A stretch of 64,000 nucleotides of DNA from an uncultured Candidatus Cenarchaeum sp. (lineage in GTDB: Archaea > Thermoproteota > Nitrososphaeria > Nitrososphaerales > Nitrosopumilaceae). The stretch covers positions 2,208,983-2,272,982 of the forward strand of contig OY282369.1 of the NCBI GenBank assembly GCA_958295735.1, read 5' to 3'. The notes beneath the pieces are model-generated. The model saw only the letters and a program-made list of their open reading frames with translations. It ran no database searches and was not told the origin of the DNA. Below, piece after piece: positions 3,073 to 23,524 of this stretch (position 1 is the first letter of the stretch; each line of letters begins with the position of its first letter). The translations under genes and the position numbers were made by a program.

Positions 3073-3242
3073 GCGGGGGCGGCCCCGCCGATCCGCGGGG
3101 AGCGCCGCCGGCCCCGCGCCCGGGGCGCGATCCGGTGCCTGCGGGCGCCGGCGCGGCGGTTTTCCGCGCCCGAGACCCGGGTTGCGGGATGCGCTGCGCG
3201 AAAGCGAATAGTTGTAACCTCCATACTCCAGTAGCCGGCATC

Positions 3243-4712
3243 TTGGCTGGCGAACACAGGCCGGAACTGGTCATCTGCGTGATCGGCGCGCTGGGGACGG
3301 ACGTGGACTGCATCTGCGACGCGATCGCCAAGGCGCTGGCCAAGGTCAAGTACAGTTCGGAAAAAATCGATCTCGGCGCCGCGCTGTCGGAGGTCGCGGG
3401 CCTGGGGACGCCCGCGGGGGAGGGCACCGAGCACGACCGGATCTCGTCCCGGATGGAGCGCGGCAACGAGCTGGAACGCATTGCGGGACCGGGCGCCGCC
3501 GCGTCCCTGGCAATGATGCTGATGCGGATGTCCCGCGAGCGCATCACGGGATCCGTGGAGAAGCCGGCCGCCGGCCACGCCTACATGCTGAAATTGATCA
3601 CGCGCGCCAGCGAGATCGAGGCGCTGCTCGACACGTTCGGCGGGCGGCCCATGCTCGTCTCCGCGTACTCGCCGAGGGACGCGAGGGTGAGGGAGCTGGA
3701 GAAGAAGGTGGGGGACGCCGCCGAGCGCCTCATGGACAGGGACTATAGCGAGGAGGGCGGCTCCGGGCAGCTGGTGAGGGTCGCGTACCGCGTGGCGGAC
3801 TATTTCGTGGATGCGCTGGATCCGGCCTCCGTCCGGCCCCAGATCGACCGGCTCGTCGGGCTGGTGTTCGGCAACCCCTTCATCACCCCGACCGCGGAGG
3901 AGACGTGCATGTCCCACGCGTTCACCAGCTCCTTCCAGTCCTCGTCCATGTCCAGGCAGGTGGGGGCGGCCGTATGGGACGCCAACGGCGACCTGATCGC
4001 TTCCGGCTTCAACGAGGTGCCAAAGGCGGGGGGCGGGGCGTACGCGGAGGGGGACGGGAACGACCGGCGCGAGTTCAGGATAGGGCACGACTCGAACCAG
4101 AGGGAGCGCGAGGGAATGCTCGCGGACGCGCTCTCGCGGATCGAGAAGGCCGGCATGCTCGCGGCGGAATTCGAGGGCATGAGCGGCGAGGAGATCGCGG
4201 CCGCGGCGCGCCGAACAGCAGATCTGTCCGGGATGAAGATCATGGACGTGACCGAGTACAGCAGGGAGATGCACGCCGAGATGGACGCCCTCGTGGGCGT
4301 CGCCAGGCGCGTCGCGTCCGTGAGGGGCGGCATCATGTACTGCACCACGTTCCCATGCCACGTCTGCGCGAAGCTCATCGTGGCCGCCGGCATACGGCTG
4401 CTCGTATTCGTCGAGACGTACGAGAAGAGCCACGCCGGGAAGCTGTTCGCCGACTCGATCAGCGTGGGAAGCCCGCAGGAGGGCAAGGTGCACTTCAAGC
4501 CGTTCGCCGGCATCTCGCCCAGGCGCCACACCGACCTCTTTACCATGGGCAGGCGCAAGGACGCGTCCGGCAGGAAGGCGGAATGGAATGCCGCCGAGGT
4601 TGCCCCGAAGCTGCTCCCCTACGGGGAGTCCTTGAAGAAGGAGGATGCGGCCGTGGACTGCCTGCTCAAAACGATGGCCGAAAACGGCCTCTCGCTGAAC
4701 CATGCCGAATGA
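3243..4712 (+). CDS. AvcD-type anti-phage dCTP/dCMP deaminase, copy A
   Basis: About 489 residues. The N-terminal half is a P-loop kinase-like domain with a degenerate loop (VIGALGTDVD, residues 13-22). The C-terminal half is a zinc cytidine/dCMP deaminase domain with HAE (about 344-346) and PCHVC (about 371-375). This architecture matches AvcD/anti-phage dCTP deaminases, which deplete deoxycytidine nucleotides during phage infection; that role is from family knowledge. I chose the TTG at 3243 because the paralogue at 22085-23524 starts with TTG exactly the same distance (six codons) before the shared PELV motif. An in-frame ATG at 3189 adds 18 residues that the paralogue lacks. The next small gene starts inside its last codons, suggesting coupling. 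Confidence 0.82.
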   Translation: MAGEHRPELVICVIGALGTDVDCICDAIAKALAKVKYSSEKIDLGAALSEVAGLGTPAGEGTEHDRISSRMERGNELERIAGPGAAASLAMMLMRMSRERITGSVEKPAAGHAYMLKLITRASEIEALLDTFGGRPMLVSAYSPRDARVRELEKKVGDAAERLMDRDYSEEGGSGQLVRVAYRVADYFVDALDPASVRPQIDRLVGLVFGNPFITPTAEETCMSHAFTSSFQSSSMSRQVGAAVWDANGDLIASGFNEVPKAGGGAYAEGDGNDRREFRIGHDSNQREREGMLADALSRIEKAGMLAAEFEGMSGEEIAAAARRTADLSGMKIMDVTEYSREMHAEMDALVGVARRVASVRGGIMYCTTFPCHVCAKLIVAAGIRLLVFVETYEKSHAGKLFADSISVGSPQEGKVHFKPFAGISPRRHTDLFTMGRRKDASGRKAEWNAAEVAPKLLPYGESLKKEDAAVDCLLKTMAENGLSLNHAE

Positions 4713-4914
4713 TGAGGCTTATACCAAAGCCCCGCCATCCCGCACCGTGGAACAAAAATACAAGAAGGGCGATCTGAGGAAACATGCGGAAATGACGGCA
4801 GCGCGCTTTGCAAAGCTGCCCGAGTGGGAACAGGAAATGCTCCTGTCCCGGTTGGAGCATACACTGCACCAAGCCCAGCTGAAGCAGGAACTGCTCCAAT
4901 CCCAGCTGGATTAA
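4702..4914 (+). CDS. Small charged protein coupled to the deaminase, copy A
   Basis: 70 residues; ATG at 4702 overlaps the end of the deaminase gene by 11 bp. It is rich in Lys, Glu and Gln, predicted mostly helical, and ends in leucine/glutamine heptads (ALL-SRLEHTLHQAQLKQ-type) that could form a coiled coil. No family recognised. From residue 10 on it is identical to the copy at 5608-5820, so it lies in a tandem duplication. The overlap suggests it is co-translated with the deaminase; a regulatory or partner role is only inference. Confidence 0.6.
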   Translation: MPNDEAYTKAPPSRTVEQKYKKGDLRKHAEMTAARFAKLPEWEQEMLLSRLEHTLHQAQLKQELLQSQLD

Positions 4915-5520
4915 GAGCAAGCCGCCGGGGCTTTTTGGCGCGGCGGCGCATTCCGCGGGAGCCGATCGCCGCGCCCGCCCCTGCCCCGGACTGCCCCACA
5001 TGCCGCATCCCCGCCGCCGCCCCATTCATCGCTCAATAGAAATCCCGCTCCGTAACCCGGACTGCCCCCCGCGCCGCATCCCCGCCGCCGCCCCGCCGGG
5101 CGCCGCGCGGTGCTGCCGCCGCCCCGCCGGGCGCCGCGCCGGCGAACCCGCCCGGCGGCGGGACGGCGCCGCCCCCGCCCGCGGCCGCATCCGGGGCGCG
5201 CTAGGCCCGCGCGGGGCGCCCGGGAACCCGCGGGCGCCCGCGCCCCCGGCAACCTCCGAAGAGGAGGATGCTCTCCGCAAGGCACACGAGCCCGGGAACC
5301 CGCGGGCGCCCGCGCCCCCGGCAACAGCGCCGGCGGCTCGCATCGGCGGGGCCCCACTCCGGCGCGCCCCGGGCGGCTTTTTTCGCGGGGGCCAAAATGC
5401 CGCCGGGGGCCGTCCCGCGCGCATCCTCCGGCGGCCCGCCCCGCGGACCCCGCGGCCGCTCCCGCCATTCCGCTCGCTGTCCCGGCTGGCGCCCGCCCGC
5501 CCGCCCGCCCGGCGCCGTCC
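4717..5520 (+). repeat. Tandem segmental duplication, unit A
   Basis: Carries the 70-residue gene and its GC-rich downstream sequence. It is nearly identical to unit B at about 5617-6235, with blocks deleted or inserted in the GC-rich part. Unit A contains a 33-bp motif (GGGAACCCGCGGGCGCCCGC start) twice, near 5221 and 5292; unit B has it once near 6013. Junctions are approximate. Confidence 0.7.
4919..4936 (+). terminator. Possible hairpin and T-run terminator after small gene A
   Basis: AAGCC-GCCGG-GGCTT can form a 5-bp stem with a 5-base loop, followed by TTT, a few bases after the stop codon. The same sequence follows copy B. The stem is short, so this is tentative. Confidence 0.35.
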
Positions 5521-5607
5521 CGGGGTGCTCCCACGCGTGGTGCCTGGAGGGCGCGGCCGCGGACCGCCCGCACGGGGCGACGGCCGAAAACGACCTCCCT
5601 GTAGACG

Positions 5608-5820
5608 ATGCCGATCTGGAAGGCTTATACCGAAGCCCCGCCATCCCGCACCGTGGAACAAAAATACAAGAAGGGCGATCTGAGGAAACATGCGGAAATG
5701 ACGGCAGCGCGCTTTGCAAAGCTGCCCGAGTGGGAACAGGAAATGCTCCTGTCCCGGTTGGAGCATACACTGCACCAAGCCCAGCTGAAGCAGGAACTGC
5801 TCCAATCCCAGCTGGATTAA
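5608..5820 (+). CDS. Small charged protein, copy B
   Basis: 70 residues, starting MPIWKAYTE rather than MPNDEAYTK and otherwise identical to copy A. Here there is no complete deaminase upstream; only about 40 bp resembling the deaminase 3' end (GCCGAAAACGACCTC near 5581) came along with the duplication. It may lack its original promoter and could be silent. Confidence 0.5.
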   Translation: MPIWKAYTEAPPSRTVEQKYKKGDLRKHAEMTAARFAKLPEWEQEMLLSRLEHTLHQAQLKQELLQSQLD

Positions 5821-6235: not shown

Positions 6236-6837
6236 CCCGAAAGCCCGCGGGATCGCGGTTTTGTGGCGGCTTTTCCCGCGGCGGGGCCCGCGGCCCCCGC
6301 GGCATCTCCCCGAAGGGCGGTCCCGCGCGCGGCTGGACGCCCCGCATTCCGCGGCGAACCGGGGGCGCGCGGCCGGACGGGCGCCCCCGCGGGCGCCGCC
6401 GGGCGCGGCGCGCAGGCGGGGCGGGGGGAGGGGCCCCGCGCCGCATTCCCCCGCCGCGCGGCGGCCTCCGCGCGCGGCGGCCCGCCTTCGCCGCGCCGCG
6501 CCCCGGGGGCCGCGCCGGGGCGCGGCGCGCCGGCCCGATCGGCGGGAAGCCCGGGGGCGGGCGGGGCGCATCCCGAGCCGTTCGTCGGCAACCGGCCCGG
6601 GCGCCGCGCCGGCCTGCGCGGGCAGGCGCGGGGACGCGCCCGGCGGGAAGGCGGACCTGGATGCCGCCGGCGCCGTCCGGGGGCCGCTCCCCCGCGGGGT
6701 GCCTGGGGGGCGCGGCCGCGGGCCGCCTGCCCGACTGGCCGAGCCCGCCCCGCGCATCGCCTTCGGGGTGCCTGGAGGGCGCGGCCGCTGACCGCCCGCC
6801 CGATGCGACGGCCGAAAACGGCCTCCCCGCGGACGAT
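6236..6837. other. GC-rich stretch without a supported gene
   Basis: Long frames exist on both strands because stop codons are rare at this GC content, but composition is Arg/Pro/Ala/Gly monotony with no recognisable family. A motif GTGCCTGGAGGGCGCGGCCGC occurs here near 6768 (with a variant at 6697) and also at 5540, suggesting decayed repeat copies. Confidence 0.5.
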
Positions 6838-7130
6838 GCCGATCTGCGTCGTACGGAAACCACGTCACCCCGACTCTCGGCGGCCAGCGGGCAGTTTTTC
6901 CAGGCCATGCCAGCCACAAAAGCAGATGGCGGGCCTCCTGATCGACATGCGGATCAAATGCGCGATCGAGGAACACGAGAAGGGGCGCAAGGCGTCGGGG
7001 ATGGCCCAAGGGAACGAGGCGATCCGGGGGCGCGCGCGGGGGATGCCCGCAGAATGCGGGCGGGCGGGCGGGCCGCCCGCGCTCCGGCGTCCCCGCGGGC
7101 CTCCCTCGCGGATCGCCGGGCGGGAGGCCG
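6838..7130 (+). pseudogene. Decayed helix-turn-helix transposase remnant, copy 1
   Basis: An ATG at 6925 opens a frame (MAGLLIDMRIKCAIEEHEKGRKASGMAQ) that aligns with the better preserved copy at 8783 (MADFLTDGQIKHAIRERRKGRRIAEIAR). The roughly 85 bp before the start codon is also similar between copies (ATCTGCGTYGTAYG... through AAAGCAGATGGCGG), so this is a repeated element, not a chance frame. The helix-turn-helix is already disrupted and only GC-rich sequence follows. Confidence 0.5.
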
Positions 7131-8699: not shown

Positions 8700-8980
8700 A
8701 TCTGCGTTGTATGAAAATTAAGTCACACTAACTCCAGGCGGCCTGCCGGGGGTTTTTCTAGGCGTACCAGTAGCAAAGGCAGATGGCGGACTTCCTGACT
8801 GACGGGCAGATCAAACACGCGATCAGGGAGCGCAGGAAGGGGCGCAGGATTGCAGAAATAGCCCGGGAGATCAAGGTGAGCCGGGGGCATGCGTGTGGGC
8901 TGCTCGCAGCACACAGGCAGACTGGCGAGCTTCCCGCGATTCGCCGACCGGGCCGCCCCGTGCGCCCGGCGCGGTCACCT
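8700..8980 (+). pseudogene. Truncated helix-turn-helix transposase N-terminus, copy 2
   Basis: Starts with ATG at 8783. The first 60 or so residues form a good helix-turn-helix (GQIKHAIRERRKGRR, IAEIAREIKVSRGHACGLL) followed by a TGELPAIRRPGRP linker, like the N-terminus of IS630/Tc1-type transposases. After about 8970 the frame stays open but becomes Pro/Arg/Ala monotony, so the catalytic domain is missing. The upstream about 85 bp is shared with copy 1 at 6838. Confidence 0.5.
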
Positions 8981-19352: not shown

Positions 19353-19820
19353 GGACGAAATGGCCGCCGTCCCGGAGCGCTCCGGGGCACGCTCCCCCGG
19401 GATCTGCATCCGCCGCGCGGCGTCCGGGACGGGACAGGCCGCAGTATCAGGTCCCCGGCGGCACGGCGCGGCCGATCGGGGGTCTGTCAGCAGATGCCGC
19501 GGTACTCGTCGTACCACCTATGGTCCTCGGGGCTGTCGAGCGGGGGCGCCATGTCCCTCCTCCACTGGGGGATCTTTGAGGCCCATTCATGGCACTCTTT
19601 CATCTGCCTAAGCAGGCTGCCCTTCTCGAACTTTTCCATGGGGGGCGCGGCCCAGTAGTCGTCGTGGGCGGAGGGAGGATACGGCGTGACCTTCCCGGCC
19701 TTTTCCTCGGCCACTCTGATGAGGGCATGCTCGTAGGTTCCCTCCGGAGGATCCGCCGGGGGCTTTTCTGATTTTTCCACGTCCTGTACCGGCAGGCCTT
19801 TGCTATAAACCCTCCCGTTC
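19353..19820 (-). repeat. Direct duplication, unit A (about 465 bp)
   Basis: Matches 19857-20324 at roughly 95% identity, including the whole 97-residue gene and its promoter. The adjacent IS at 20330 starts right at the end of unit B, and sequence resembling the continuation of unit A (TCGGCATCGGCGCGGG) resumes after the IS at 21969, so the IS landed in unit B. Confidence 0.75.
19487..19780 (-). CDS. Small unknown protein, duplicated, copy A
   Basis: 97 residues from GTG 19780, 29 bp after TTTATAG at 19809-19803; this matches the start of copy B. Acidic and helical, with motifs PPEGTYEHALIRVAEEKAGK, HDDYWAAPPMEKFEKGSLL and a C-terminal DHRWYDEYRGIC. Family not recognised. An in-frame ATG at 19825 would place the promoter inside the gene, so it is less likely. 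A segment (KFEKGSLLRQ...AKIPQW) resembles KYKKGDLRKH...AKLPEW in the 70-residue proteins at 4702 and 5608. Confidence 0.6.
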   Translation of the reverse strand: MEKSEKPPADPPEGTYEHALIRVAEEKAGKVTPYPPSAHDDYWAAPPMEKFEKGSLLRQMKECHEWASKIPQWRRDMAPPLDSPEDHRWYDEYRGIC

Positions 19821-19856: not shown

Positions 19857-20324
19857 GCCGGCGGACGAAAAGGCCGCCGTCCCGGAGCGCTCCGGGGCAC
19901 GCTTCCCCGGGATCTGCATCCGCCGCGCGGCGTCCGGGACGGGACAGGCCGCAGTATCAGGTCCCCGGCGGCACGGCGCGGCCGATCGGGGGTCTGTCAG
20001 CAGATGCCGCGGTACTCGTCGTACCACCTATGGTCCTCGGGGCTGTCGAGCGGGGGCGCCATGTCCTTCCGCCACTGGGGGATCTTTGCGGCCCACTCTT
20101 GGCACTCTTTCAACTGCCTAAGCAGGCTACCCTTCTCGAACTTTTCCATGGGAGGCGCGGCCCAGTAGTCGTCGTGGGCGGAGGGAGGATACGGCGTGAC
20201 CTTCCCGGCCTTTTCCTCGGCCACTCTGATGAGGGCATGCTCGTAGGTTCCTTCCGGAGGATCCGCCGGGGGCTTTTCTGACTCTTCCACGTCCTGTACC
20301 GGCAGGCCTTTGCTATAAACACTC
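19857..20324 (-). repeat. Direct duplication, unit B
   Basis: Second unit of the duplication described at 19353. Confidence 0.75.
19997..20290 (-). CDS. Small unknown protein, duplicated, copy B
   Basis: 97 residues from GTG 20290, 29 bp after TTTATAG at 20319-20313. It differs from copy A at a handful of residues (for example QLKECQEWAA for QMKECHEWAS). Both copies are open, so selection may keep both. The IS at 20330 lies only about 10 bp upstream of its promoter. Confidence 0.6.
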   Translation of the reverse strand: MEESEKPPADPPEGTYEHALIRVAEEKAGKVTPYPPSAHDDYWAAPPMEKFEKGSLLRQLKECQEWAAKIPQWRKDMAPPLDSPEDHRWYDEYRGIC

Positions 20325-20329
20325 CCGTG

Positions 20330-21968
20330 CAGTTAACGCAAATGTATGCCGCACGGCACGCCGTTTCCGGCCCGAAAATACCAGGAAACGCGAGGTCTGG
20401 CGGGCCGCGGCCGCGTTGGGCGGGATCGCGGCGGTTATGACGGCGCGGCCCGGGGCGCGGCGGCGGAAAGTCGCGGCGGGCCGGGGCAGGGGCGCGGCCG
20501 CGCGCGATGCGGCGCGCGGGATCCCCCGGCGGAACGGGCGGCGCGGGAACGGCGGCGGCCGCGCGGGGAATGGCGCGGGCGATCGCCGCCGGGCGCGGCG
20601 GGCCGCGCGGGAGGATCGGGGCGGGGCGCGGCGCGGCCACCCGCGGCGCGGCCACCCGCGGAGAAACCACCTACGGAGCAATTGGCGGCGGGCCAGGGCC
20701 CGTGTCCGGGTACCACACCAGGACGGCCATGGCGACCAGCGCCGAGTGCAGCCTGATCGGGCGCCCCGCGCGGGCCGCGTCGCCCGGCAGCCCGGCCAGC
20801 GCGCCGACCAGCACCCACGCGTTGAAGAGCATTATGGTGATGGCCATGCACATGACCCGGGGACCGTGCCCGGTGCTCCGTGTCTTGACCCGCATCGATT
20901 CCAGCATCCGGTAGTTCGTCTCTATGCCCCAGCGCTTGGAGTACTTGTCCACGTCGATGCCCGGATCGTTGGTGGCGAACGCGATGTATTTTTCGTGCGG
21001 CTCCTTGCGCCAGTCGTCCTTCTTGCTCCCGGATCTCCTTTCGGTTACCACCATCGTGTACGGGCACTTCAGGCCCCCCGACGAGGTGATCACCGCGTCC
21101 GAGGCCCGCTCGCGCCTGCCTGCCTCGAAATCGGCGAGGGCCCGTATTACGTAGGGCGTGTTCGGGCACGGCATGAGCCACTTGACGCCCGATTCCTGGA
21201 GCAGGGAGACCATTGACTGCGAAAAGAACTCGCGGTCCATCATGACCTTCCCCAGCCGCACGCCGTGCTCCCTGCAGGAGGCGAGCAGGGCGCGCACGGC
21301 CACGGCGTGGCTGTCGGCCGAGGTGTACGGGAACATGCCCAGCGTGAGCCTCTGGCCGTCCACGAGGCACTGTATGGTGCAGTACGTCTCGTAGAACGCC
21401 TTGGACTTTGACGCCTTGTCCCCGCCGCGGACGAGCTCCGGGCCGGGCTTCTTGTCGAAGCGCCGTATGTTGTGGAAGTCGATCGCCACGTCGAGCTCGT
21501 CGTCGATCTTCCCGACGCGCCGCATCTCCGCCAGCACGTAGCAGATCTGCGCGTACAGCGCCCCGACCGCCATGCCCGGAGTCACGCCGCGCATCGCCAG
21601 GCGCACCCACTCGCCCGACGGCATGTCGGCGACGGCCGTGCAGGTAGCCTCCTGCGCCTCCCGCCTGGCCTCCGCGGCGCAGGCCATGTTGCCCTTGCCC
21701 GTGGCCGCCTCCAGGATGCACCCGACCAGGTTGCGCGCCCCGTACTTGGCGTTGGGGGCGTCCGAGAACTTGCAGACGCCCACGCCTTTGGTCACCATGT
21801 CGATCATTCGTTCATATTGGTATGGCACTCCCCTGATGCGTCCCAGGCGGCTTTTCTTCATGGTGGTTGAAAAGCCGCCAGGGACTATCCTTTATGCATC
21901 TTCCGGTGGCCGGCCCCTTGGATCGCCGCCGGCCTCGGTGGCGGATTCCGCCACTTTTGCGTTAACTG
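20330..21968 (-). mobile_element. Intact insertion sequence with 13-bp terminal inverted repeats
   Basis: Ends are CAGTTAACGCAAA at 20330-20342 and its exact inverse at 21956-21968; length 1,639 bp. It holds one transposase gene and about 330 bp of non-coding sequence between the transposase stop and the left end. No convincing target duplication is seen. Related sequences in the window: decayed copy at 18590-19350, decayed and interrupted copy at 54179-57714, and a truncated copy at 58497-59205. Confidence 0.85.
20671..21861 (-). CDS. DDE transposase (IS4-like) of the intact IS
   Basis: 396 residues, ATG at 21861, about 30 bp after a TATA-like ATAAAGGATA. Candidate catalytic acidic residues are in DVAIDFHNIR, MMDREFFSQ and KRWGIETNYRMLE; the last resembles the IS4-type Y-R-E signature (WGIETNYRM followed by a downstream Lys/Arg). 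The C-terminal region (MCMAITIMLFNAWVL) is hydrophobic, as in many archaeal IS4-like enzymes. The gene is uninterrupted and inside perfect terminal repeats, so the element may be active. The exact IS family is not certain. Confidence 0.78.
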   Translation of the reverse strand: MKKSRLGRIRGVPYQYERMIDMVTKGVGVCKFSDAPNAKYGARNLVGCILEAATGKGNMACAAEARREAQEATCTAVADMPSGEWVRLAMRGVTPGMAVGALYAQICYVLAEMRRVGKIDDELDVAIDFHNIRRFDKKPGPELVRGGDKASKSKAFYETYCTIQCLVDGQRLTLGMFPYTSADSHAVAVRALLASCREHGVRLGKVMMDREFFSQSMVSLLQESGVKWLMPCPNTPYVIRALADFEAGRRERASDAVITSSGGLKCPYTMVVTERRSGSKKDDWRKEPHEKYIAFATNDPGIDVDKYSKRWGIETNYRMLESMRVKTRSTGHGPRVMCMAITIMLFNAWVLVGALAGLPGDAARAGRPIRLHSALVAMAVLVWYPDTGPGPPPIAP

Positions 21969-22084: not shown

Positions 22085-23524
22085 CTAGGCGATGTGTTTG
22101 AGCAAGCTGTCCACTACTACGCCCTCGTCCATCAGCGACTCCCCGTAGCCTGGCAGCCTCGGGACGGACTCGGCGGCAACCCAGCGCGCCCGCCTGCCGG
22201 ACGCGTCCTTGCGCCTGCCCATGGCGAAAAAGTCGACGTAGTACAGGGGCGAGATGCCGATGTACGGGTCAAAGTGGACCCTGCCCGCCTGCCGGTCGCC
22301 GACGCTTATCGAGTCGTTGAACATCTTCTCGGCGTGGCTCTTCGGGTACGGCTCGATGAAGACGACCCGCCGTATGCCGGCGATCACGATGTGCTTCGCG
22401 CAGGCATGGCAGGGGAACGTGGTGCAGTACATGGTGCAGCCCCTCACTGACGCGCCGCGCCTGGCGGCGCCCGCCAGGGCGCCCATTTCCGCGTGCACCT
22501 CCCTGCCGTACTCGGTGACGTCCATGAGTTTCATGCCGGCGAGATCGGGCGATCGCATGGCGATGCCCGCGAGCTCCTTCCCGTCCATGCCCGCGTATTC
22601 TTCCTTGTGCCAGCCCGCCCGCCCGAGCCTCGACAGCAGGTCCGCGAGCATTCCCTCCCTCTCCCTCTGGTTAGAGTCGTGCCCCCGGACGAACTCGCGC
22701 TGGTCGTTCTTGTCACCCTCCGCATAGACCCCGCCCCCGGCCTTGGGCACCTCGTTGACGCCGGTGGAGACCAGATCGCCCCACTCGTCGAATACGGCCG
22801 CCCCCGCCTGCCTCGACATGGACGACGACGGGAGGGAGCTGGAATACGCGTGGAACATGCCGGACTCCTCCGCGGTCGGGGTAAGGAACGGGTTGCCGAA
22901 GAGCCTCTCCATGTGGCGGGTGATCTGCGCCTGCGCAACTGCTGGAACCGACGCGTCGACGAAGCAGTTCGCCATCGGGAACGCGTCCCTGACGGACTGG
23001 CCGGCGTCGCCATTTTCGTGGTAGTCCCTGTCCATGAGGGCCCCCGCGCGATCCCCCGCAATCCCTTCCACCGCCCTGATCCTCTCGGATCTCGGCGCGT
23101 ACGCGGAGAATAACTGGAACCGCCCTCCGTACAGGCCGCGCAGCATCCTGACCTCGCCGGGGTGCTTGATCGGCCCGGCAACGTACGCGCAGCCGGCGGC
23201 CGGCATTCTTGCGGATCCCGTGATGCCTTTGCGCAACTCCAGCATCCGGGCCACCGCCAGGGCGGCGCCCGCCCCCGCCCCCGCCCTCCGCCTGAGCTCG
23301 CTGCCCCTGTCCATCCCCGACTCGATCCTGTCGTATTCCGTGCCGTCCCTTGCCGGCGTGTCCAGGCTCGCAATCTCGGAGAGCGCGTCCCCGAGCGGGA
23401 TGTGCTTCGGGACGTACCCCACGGCGCCCGCCGACCTGGAGACCATGCGGCGCGCGGCGCCCAGATCCGTCCCCAGGAGCCCGGCCAGCCCGAAGACCAG
23501 CTCCGGCCGCGTCGCGTCGTTCAA
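22085..23524 (-). CDS. AvcD-type anti-phage dCTP/dCMP deaminase, copy B
   Basis: 479 residues from TTG 23524. Same two-domain layout as copy A at 3243: degenerate P-loop (LAGLLGTDLG), then the deaminase with HAE (EVHAEMGAL) and PCHAC. Roughly half of residues are identical, so the paralogues are old rather than a recent duplication. A TATA-like ACTTATATT at 23557-23549 supports leaderless initiation at the TTG; no other start is near. It is a single gene and, unlike copy A, has no coupled small protein. Phage-triggered depletion of dCTP is known for the family and inferred here. Confidence 0.82.
   Translation of the reverse strand: MNDATRPELVFGLAGLLGTDLGAARRMVSRSAGAVGYVPKHIPLGDALSEIASLDTPARDGTEYDRIESGMDRGSELRRRAGAGAGAALAVARMLELRKGITGSARMPAAGCAYVAGPIKHPGEVRMLRGLYGGRFQLFSAYAPRSERIRAVEGIAGDRAGALMDRDYHENGDAGQSVRDAFPMANCFVDASVPAVAQAQITRHMERLFGNPFLTPTAEESGMFHAYSSSLPSSSMSRQAGAAVFDEWGDLVSTGVNEVPKAGGGVYAEGDKNDQREFVRGHDSNQREREGMLADLLSRLGRAGWHKEEYAGMDGKELAGIAMRSPDLAGMKLMDVTEYGREVHAEMGALAGAARRGASVRGCTMYCTTFPCHACAKHIVIAGIRRVVFIEPYPKSHAEKMFNDSISVGDRQAGRVHFDPYIGISPLYYVDFFAMGRRKDASGRRARWVAAESVPRLPGYGESLMDEGVVVDSLLKHIA

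What the first reader, a model, noticed from the sequence alone, without database searches (positions are those of the whole stretch)
4702..5820. Deaminase-coupled 70-residue protein, tandemly duplicated
The gene starts inside the deaminase gene and has been duplicated together with about 800 bp. In AvcID systems the deaminase is held in check by a partner RNA; here a coupled small protein could be the partner. It is not found next to deaminase copy B.
Basis: inference. Interest (0 to 1): 0.6.

Follow-up and report, generated by a model that had tools for sequence, protein, structure and literature searches.

The report
Conserved small partner of antiviral deaminase
Behind every copy of a virus-defence enzyme in this ammonia-oxidising archaeon sit one to six copies of a gene for a tiny helical protein that also accompanies related enzymes in other microbes and phage-like elements; it is probably the enzyme's protein safety catch, where the best-studied relatives use an RNA instead.

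Summary
The two tandem ORFs exist, but the finding needs correction and is larger than stated. The window lies in a 3.17-Mb ammonia-oxidising archaeon whose genome holds 12 AvcD-like anti-phage dCTP deaminase genes. All 12 are followed by one to six copies of this small gene (36 in the genome), including copy B, where an IS was inserted in between. The first 15 codons of the '70-residue' ORF are a promoter: a TATA box lies exactly 28 nt before an ATG/GTG at codon 16, which is this genome's leaderless spacing; a homologue has an in-frame stop upstream of that codon. The real protein is 55 aa and identical in both window copies, so translational coupling is not supported. A profile of the small protein recovers homologues directly downstream of AvcD-like deaminases in another AOA genus, another archaeal family, a Vibrio plasmid, viral contigs and proteobacteria (some found by a model not trained on them). 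No upstream RNA antitoxin fits: the deaminases carry their own TATA box about 30 nt before their start. Best reading: a protein partner, most likely an inhibitor (type II-like) in place of AvcI RNA. Partnership is well supported; inhibition is inferred.

The parts
3243..4712 (+). AvcD-like anti-phage dCTP deaminase, copy A, 489 aa, TTG start; N-terminal kinase-like domain plus C-terminal HAE...PCxxC zinc deaminase domain
   Evidence: PADLOC dCTPase E 1.3e-116; NF041025 E 5.7e-106 but 355 bits, below the 400 cut-off; catalytic residues invariant; AF2 pLDDT 83.6, pTM 0.81, Foldseek hits to dCMP deaminases and AdkA-like kinases
3212..3217 (+). TATA-like box of deaminase A (TTGTAA; TTATAA in several paralogues), about 30 nt before the TTG start
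4719..4723 (+).
4747..4914 (+). Small partner gene A1, GTG start, 55 aa (VEQKYKKGDLRKHAEMTAARFAKLPEWEQEM...), predicted two-helix hairpin
5625..5629 (+). TATA box of small gene A2
5653..5820 (+). Small partner gene A2, tandem copy, protein identical to A1
6774..6842 (+). Remnant of a third unit (75% to 4640-4708), cut at ATGCCGATCT by an IS remnant that continues 6842-7092
22085..23524 (-). AvcD-like deaminase copy B (58% identical), TTG start
20330..21968 (-). Insertion sequence with terminal repeats CAGTTAACGCAAA, carrying a transposase, inserted just upstream of the TATA box of small gene B1
19997..20290 (-). Small partner gene B1, GTG start, 97 aa with N-terminal extension; TATA box 20319-20314
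19487..19780 (-). Small partner gene B2, GTG start, 97 aa; TATA box 19809-19804

Best explanation
Each locus is a two-component anti-viral module: an AvcD-like dCTP/dCMP deaminase plus a separately promoted, usually multi-copy gene for a small helical-hairpin protein with a [L/M/I/W]P-x-W motif that partners the enzyme. Most likely the small protein binds the deaminase and holds it inactive, a protein antitoxin (type II-like) doing the job that AvcI RNA does in AvcID. It is made in excess from its own TATA-box leaderless promoter and from extra gene copies. When infection shuts off host gene expression, a labile partner would be lost first and the enzyme would then drain dCTP. Shown here: conserved association, own promoters and start codon (by sequence), tandem copies, predicted fold. 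Inferred: binding, inhibition, lability, anti-viral role.
For: All 12 deaminase genes of the genome have 1-6 small genes downstream, 36 in all. A six-frame profile scan of 677 kb of relatives' loci put nearly all hits directly downstream of the deaminase; a model not trained on them found two more (L185 18.9 bits, L184 14.9 bits; best same-size control 7.8 apart from the own tandem copies). Partner-positive deaminases fall in two groups on the tree, apart from the enterobacterial type with an upstream small ORF. TTATA is 28 nt before codon 16 in the intact copies of the main family; Tyr-7 is TAT in 22 of 22 although TAT is 14 of 163 Tyr codons in the deaminases; starts in the rest of the sampled genome peak at the same 28 nt, P about 1e-6. 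In L058 a TAG lies in frame just upstream of the homologous ATG, under a TATA box. Small genes outnumber deaminases while most extra deaminase 3' ends have decayed. The deaminase's own TATA box leaves no room for a co-transcribed upstream RNA; no Rfam match.
Against: No binding, inhibition or expression data. Among paralogues in this genome the small gene shows little excess of silent change (pS 0.24, pN 0.19), as do the deaminases (0.12, 0.11), so coding constraint rests on comparisons between lineages (ratio mostly 0.2-0.5), kept frames and invariant residues. Many alphaproteobacterial relatives show no such gene.
Confidence: 0.6

Rival explanations
1. The small protein is a positive partner: an activator, infection sensor or structural subunit that the deaminase needs, not an inhibitor. 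Extra copies would supply alternative sensor variants.
For: Association without direction is all the sequence shows. The small protein diverges about 1.8 times as fast in amino acids as the deaminase (mean pN 0.19 vs 0.11) around fixed K, G, P and W positions, which suits recognition of changing viral triggers.
Against: The two window copies encode identical proteins, so that array adds dose, not variety. A separate promoter and several gene copies per enzyme suit a partner needed in excess.
Confidence: 0.22
2. The antitoxin is still an RNA, as in AvcID, made from the small gene's transcript or the GC-rich spacer; the ORF is incidental or secondary.
For: Spacers are also partly conserved between units, with blocks at 94-100%; within-genome substitutions do not show classic coding constraint; the characterised relatives use an RNA (PMC10511110, PMC9455884).
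Against: The motif is conserved at protein level across distant lineages; AF2 gives a confident hairpin (pLDDT 88); starts and stops are kept; no upstream RNA room; no Rfam match.
Confidence: 0.1
3. The small gene is a passenger: a promoter-ORF cassette amplified with the deaminase's 3' end by tandem duplication and gene conversion, with no function of its own.
For: Arrays include deaminase 3' fragments, IS elements are present, four copies have lost the TATA box, and the within-genome pN/pS is near neutral.
Against: The association holds in distant deaminases (36% identity and less) in other archaea, viral contigs and bacteria; 32 of 36 copies keep TATA box and start in register while neighbouring deaminase fragments decay.
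Confidence: 0.06

Closest known systems
AvcID (AvcD deaminase with AvcI RNA), a type III toxin-antitoxin anti-phage system
   Same: AvcD-like two-domain deaminase with intact catalytic HAE and PCxxC motifs; a small neighbouring gene as the presumed regulator.
   Different: In AvcID an RNA upstream of avcD binds and inhibits the enzyme (PMC10511110; location PMC9455884). Here the neighbour is a downstream protein-coding gene with its own promoter, often in several copies, and no room exists for a co-transcribed upstream RNA. GTDxD replaces the Walker-A-like GSGVKT seen in the E. coli plasmid enzyme L114.
Anti-phage dCTP deaminase (NCBIfam NF041025, PADLOC dCTPase)
   Same: Whole-length profile match of the deaminases (PADLOC E 1e-116).
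   Different: Scores 355-374 bits, below NCBIfam's 400-bit cut-off. The small protein matched nothing in PADLOC and only a weak unrelated model in NCBIfam, so it is not a described component there.
Type II toxin-antitoxin modules in general
   Same: Enzyme and small protein encoded side by side, the small one present in extra copies.
   Different: The enzyme gene comes first; the partner has a separate leaderless promoter and is amplified 1-6 fold; no DNA-binding antitoxin domain found; neutralisation untested.

Membership tests
AvcID type III toxin-antitoxin system | AvcD-type two-domain dC nucleotide deaminase | tested here: met
   whole-length profile match; kinase-like N domain; dCMP-deaminase C domain with HAE and PCxxC
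AvcID type III toxin-antitoxin system | RNA antitoxin encoded immediately upstream of the deaminase | tested here: not met
   TATA box about 30 nt before the deaminase start in most paralogues, so no leader of 170-280 nt; no Rfam match in window 1-24000. An RNA encoded elsewhere is not excluded
AvcID type III toxin-antitoxin system | Antitoxin binds and inhibits the deaminase and is lost when host transcription stops | not testable with these tools
   Needs biochemistry
NF041025 anti-phage dCTP deaminase (NCBI equivalog) | Score over the curated 400-bit cut-off | tested here: not met
   355 bits for copy A; 362-374 bits for the best paralogues
Type II toxin-antitoxin | Small protein gene next to the toxin gene, association conserved across lineages | tested here: met
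Type II toxin-antitoxin | The small protein neutralises the toxin by direct binding | not testable with these tools
Type II toxin-antitoxin | The small gene is translated | tested here: inconclusive
   Between lineages the pN/pS-based ratio is mostly 0.2-0.5 (L57-L16 0.21; B1-B2 tandem pair 0.20) and motif and frame are kept, but most within-genome ratios are near 0.9

The most novel reading that the evidence does not exclude
A previously unnamed family of 36- to roughly 100-residue helical-hairpin proteins is the protein antitoxin of a large branch of AvcD-like deaminases in archaea, bacteria and phage-like elements, so this defence family has switched between RNA and protein inhibitors; in one archaeon the module has expanded to 12 deaminases with 36 antitoxin genes in dosage arrays.
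Probability: 0.5. Interest if true: 0.78.

Novelty: new variant of a known kind. Interest (0 to 1): 0.66.

Why it matters
It would give a known anti-phage nucleotide-depletion family a second, protein-based control, and a set of testable pairs in bacteria (Vibrio plasmid, proteobacteria) as well as archaea. The 12-fold expansion in one ammonia-oxidising archaeon, while only one of 60 sampled relatives has a comparable deaminase, points to strong virus pressure on a group whose defences are little studied. It also corrects gene starts: ORF callers would extend these genes through their own TATA box.

Tried and rejected
Translational coupling through the 11-nt overlap: rejected for this archaeon, because the TATA box and start lie inside the ORF and an in-frame stop precedes the homologous start in L058. 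Frame +1 as the coding frame: it shows the larger excess of silent changes but is closed by a stop in the sequences inspected. Absence beside copy B: rejected. Rfam: nothing. Pfam, PADLOC, NCBIfam and PHROGs for the small protein: no match or only sub-threshold matches, among them villin headpiece at best E 0.004; Foldseek no hit under E 3.9, not used. Whole-genome search of 379 proteobacterial genomes with the small profile: three marginal partial hits, and the L184/L185 homologues were missed, so the profile is too short for whole-genome use. Search of IMG/VR with the small protein alone: none. Literature for the motif or a protein partner: none found in the held library. Co-divergence of partner and deaminase: rank correlation 0.14, not significant.

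Full report
OBSERVATION. The two 70-codon ORFs are at 4702-4914 and 5608-5820. They lie in a tandem repeat with 906-bp spacing: 377 nt at 92%, then a GC-rich spacer at about 79%. The first overlaps the stop of the deaminase gene by 11 nt. The upstream enzyme is an AvcD-like anti-phage dCTP deaminase (PADLOC dCTPase E 1.3e-116; NF041025 355 bits against a 400 cut-off). Its predicted structure has an adenylate-kinase-like N domain and a dCMP-deaminase C domain.

THE HOST. The window is part of a single 3.17-Mb contig. The genome carries archaeal AmoA, so it is an ammonia-oxidising archaeon; one 2.0-Mb genome shares its genus. I take it to be a Cenarchaeum-like organism, which is inference. One of 60 other relatives has a deaminase like this, and two of 300 genomes sampled from the phylum, the own one included, match NF041025.

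A MULTI-COPY MODULE. The genome has 12 large deaminase genes (45-100% identical to copy A) plus fragments. One of the 12 is split by about 1.3 kb (N-terminal piece at 2731639-2731863). A search with the small protein alone found arrays behind eight of them, reading the DNA showed a ninth, and a family profile found the rest, verified base by base. All 12 have 1-6 small genes downstream, 36 in total; one of the 36 stands beside a deaminase C-terminal fragment instead. Copy B is no exception: an IS with CAGTTAACGCAAA ends (20330-21968) sits between the deaminase and two 97-codon small genes.

TRUE START. Intact copies of the main family keep TATACC at codons 7-8: Tyr-7 is TAT in 22 of 22, although TAT is 14 of 163 Tyr codons in the deaminases, while the neighbouring codon 6 varies. 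Four copies have no TATA box and also show other decay of the family sequence. ATG or GTG stands exactly 28 nt after the first T of TTATA. In 140 other TATA-like sites from this genome's fetched loci, start codons peak at the same 28 nt (14 against 2.7 expected, P about 1e-6), so leaderless starts are the local rule. In L058 an in-frame TAG precedes the homologous ATG, which has its own TATA box; L057 and the AOA relative L040 have TATA boxes at matching spacing. Hence the protein starts at 4747 or 5653, has 55 residues, and the two window copies are identical; the differences between them lie in the promoter. The deaminases likewise carry TATA boxes about 30 nt before TTG or ATG starts in most copies, leaving no room for a co-transcribed upstream RNA.

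CONSERVED PARTNER. Relatives of the deaminase were fetched from genomes, viral contigs, plasmids and phage records. A profile of the archaeal small proteins scanned over 677 kb in six frames scored best directly downstream of deaminases, with one probable chance hit among the top eight (L061). Homologues: L057/L058 (MEKLEKGWLKKQIEESVKRCEKMPQW...; contigs binned as Acidimicrobiia but with archaeal-type TATA boxes), L040 (another AOA genus), L122 (another archaeal family...IIDQWPDWKKN), L110/L111, L134 and L118 (virus or phage-like contigs), L112 (Vibrio plasmid...VESWPAWKQE). Two proteobacterial loci not used in training, L185 and L184, scored 18.9 and 14.9 bits right behind the deaminase, against at most 7.8 bits in same-size control stretches once the own-genome tandem copies are set aside. 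On the deaminase tree, partner-positive sequences form two groups; the enterobacterial plasmid enzymes that carry a small ORF upstream form another; the alphaproteobacterial majority shows neither. In the bacterial and viral loci the small gene usually follows within a few bases or overlaps the stop; in archaea near the window it has its own promoter.

THE PROTEIN. Two helices joined by a proline turn (pLDDT 88; residues 7-22 and 26-54). P and W of the PxW motif are nearly invariant. No database family reaches threshold and Foldseek finds nothing significant.

EVOLUTION. Compared with the nearest outside homologue the small gene shows coding constraint (ratio 0.21 for L057 vs L016; 0.20 for the tandem pair B1 and B2). 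Among paralogues in this genome pN is close to pS for both small gene and deaminase, with the small protein changing about 1.8 times as fast. I read this as rapid diversification with intact frames, but relaxed constraint cannot be ruled out, and gene conversion blurs the counts. Indels between the tandem units examined fall in the spacer, not in the promoter-ORF stretch.

HOW IT PROBABLY WORKS. Shown: association, separate promoter (by sequence), extra copies, fold prediction. Inferred: the hairpin protein binds and restrains the deaminase; losing it during infection frees the enzyme to deplete dCTP. The analogy is AvcID, where phage shut-off of host transcription removes the labile AvcI RNA (PMC10511110) encoded upstream of avcD (PMC9455884). 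The module fails the AvcID membership test on the upstream RNA, so I do not file it as AvcID, only as an AvcD-like enzyme with a protein partner that may work like AvcI.

VERDICT. A conserved, unnamed protein partner of anti-phage deaminases, amplified in one archaeon, is a new variant of a known kind.

Noticed in passing
L114 1685-1870, L115 1692-1874, L116 832-1014; L119 upstream of the deaminase: Enterobacterial plasmid and phage-like deaminases have a 56-61-codon ORF upstream, ending in Trp (...SKSLKW...SKKITW...QKTDW). Between L115 and L116 silent changes exceed replacement changes (pS 0.63, pN 0.31), so the region where AvcI RNA lies in AvcID may be protein-coding there.
   Followed up: partly
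L072, L074, L183, just downstream of the deaminase: A different small ORF (MTEKLVRNTSDPKWRAWWEAVEAAAAKAP... in L074) overlaps or closely follows the deaminase stop in a separate deaminase clade; possibly another partner type.
   Followed up: no
L018 and G000:C1:2729074-2731863: One of the 12 deaminases is split: its N-terminal part lies about 1.3 kb upstream of the rest.
   Followed up: no
L057, L058, L195-L198 (genome G341): Contigs of a MAG labelled Acidimicrobiia carry deaminases nested among the archaeal ones with archaeal-type TATA boxes and several small genes, two of them without a full deaminase nearby; mis-binning or transfer between domains.
   Followed up: partly
window 6842-7092 and 8700-8949: Two related IS-like remnants (about 70% identical); the first cuts off the third small-gene unit.
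   Followed up: partly
window 4915-5600: Array spacer is 82% GC against 54% for the small gene and 67% for the deaminase; spacer blocks in the L016/L018 arrays are conserved between units for no known reason.
   Followed up: no
N-terminal domain of the deaminases, alignment A5: The E. coli plasmid enzyme L114 has a Walker-A-like GSGVKT; the archaeal and L110-type enzymes have GTDxD or similar in its place.
   Followed up: no
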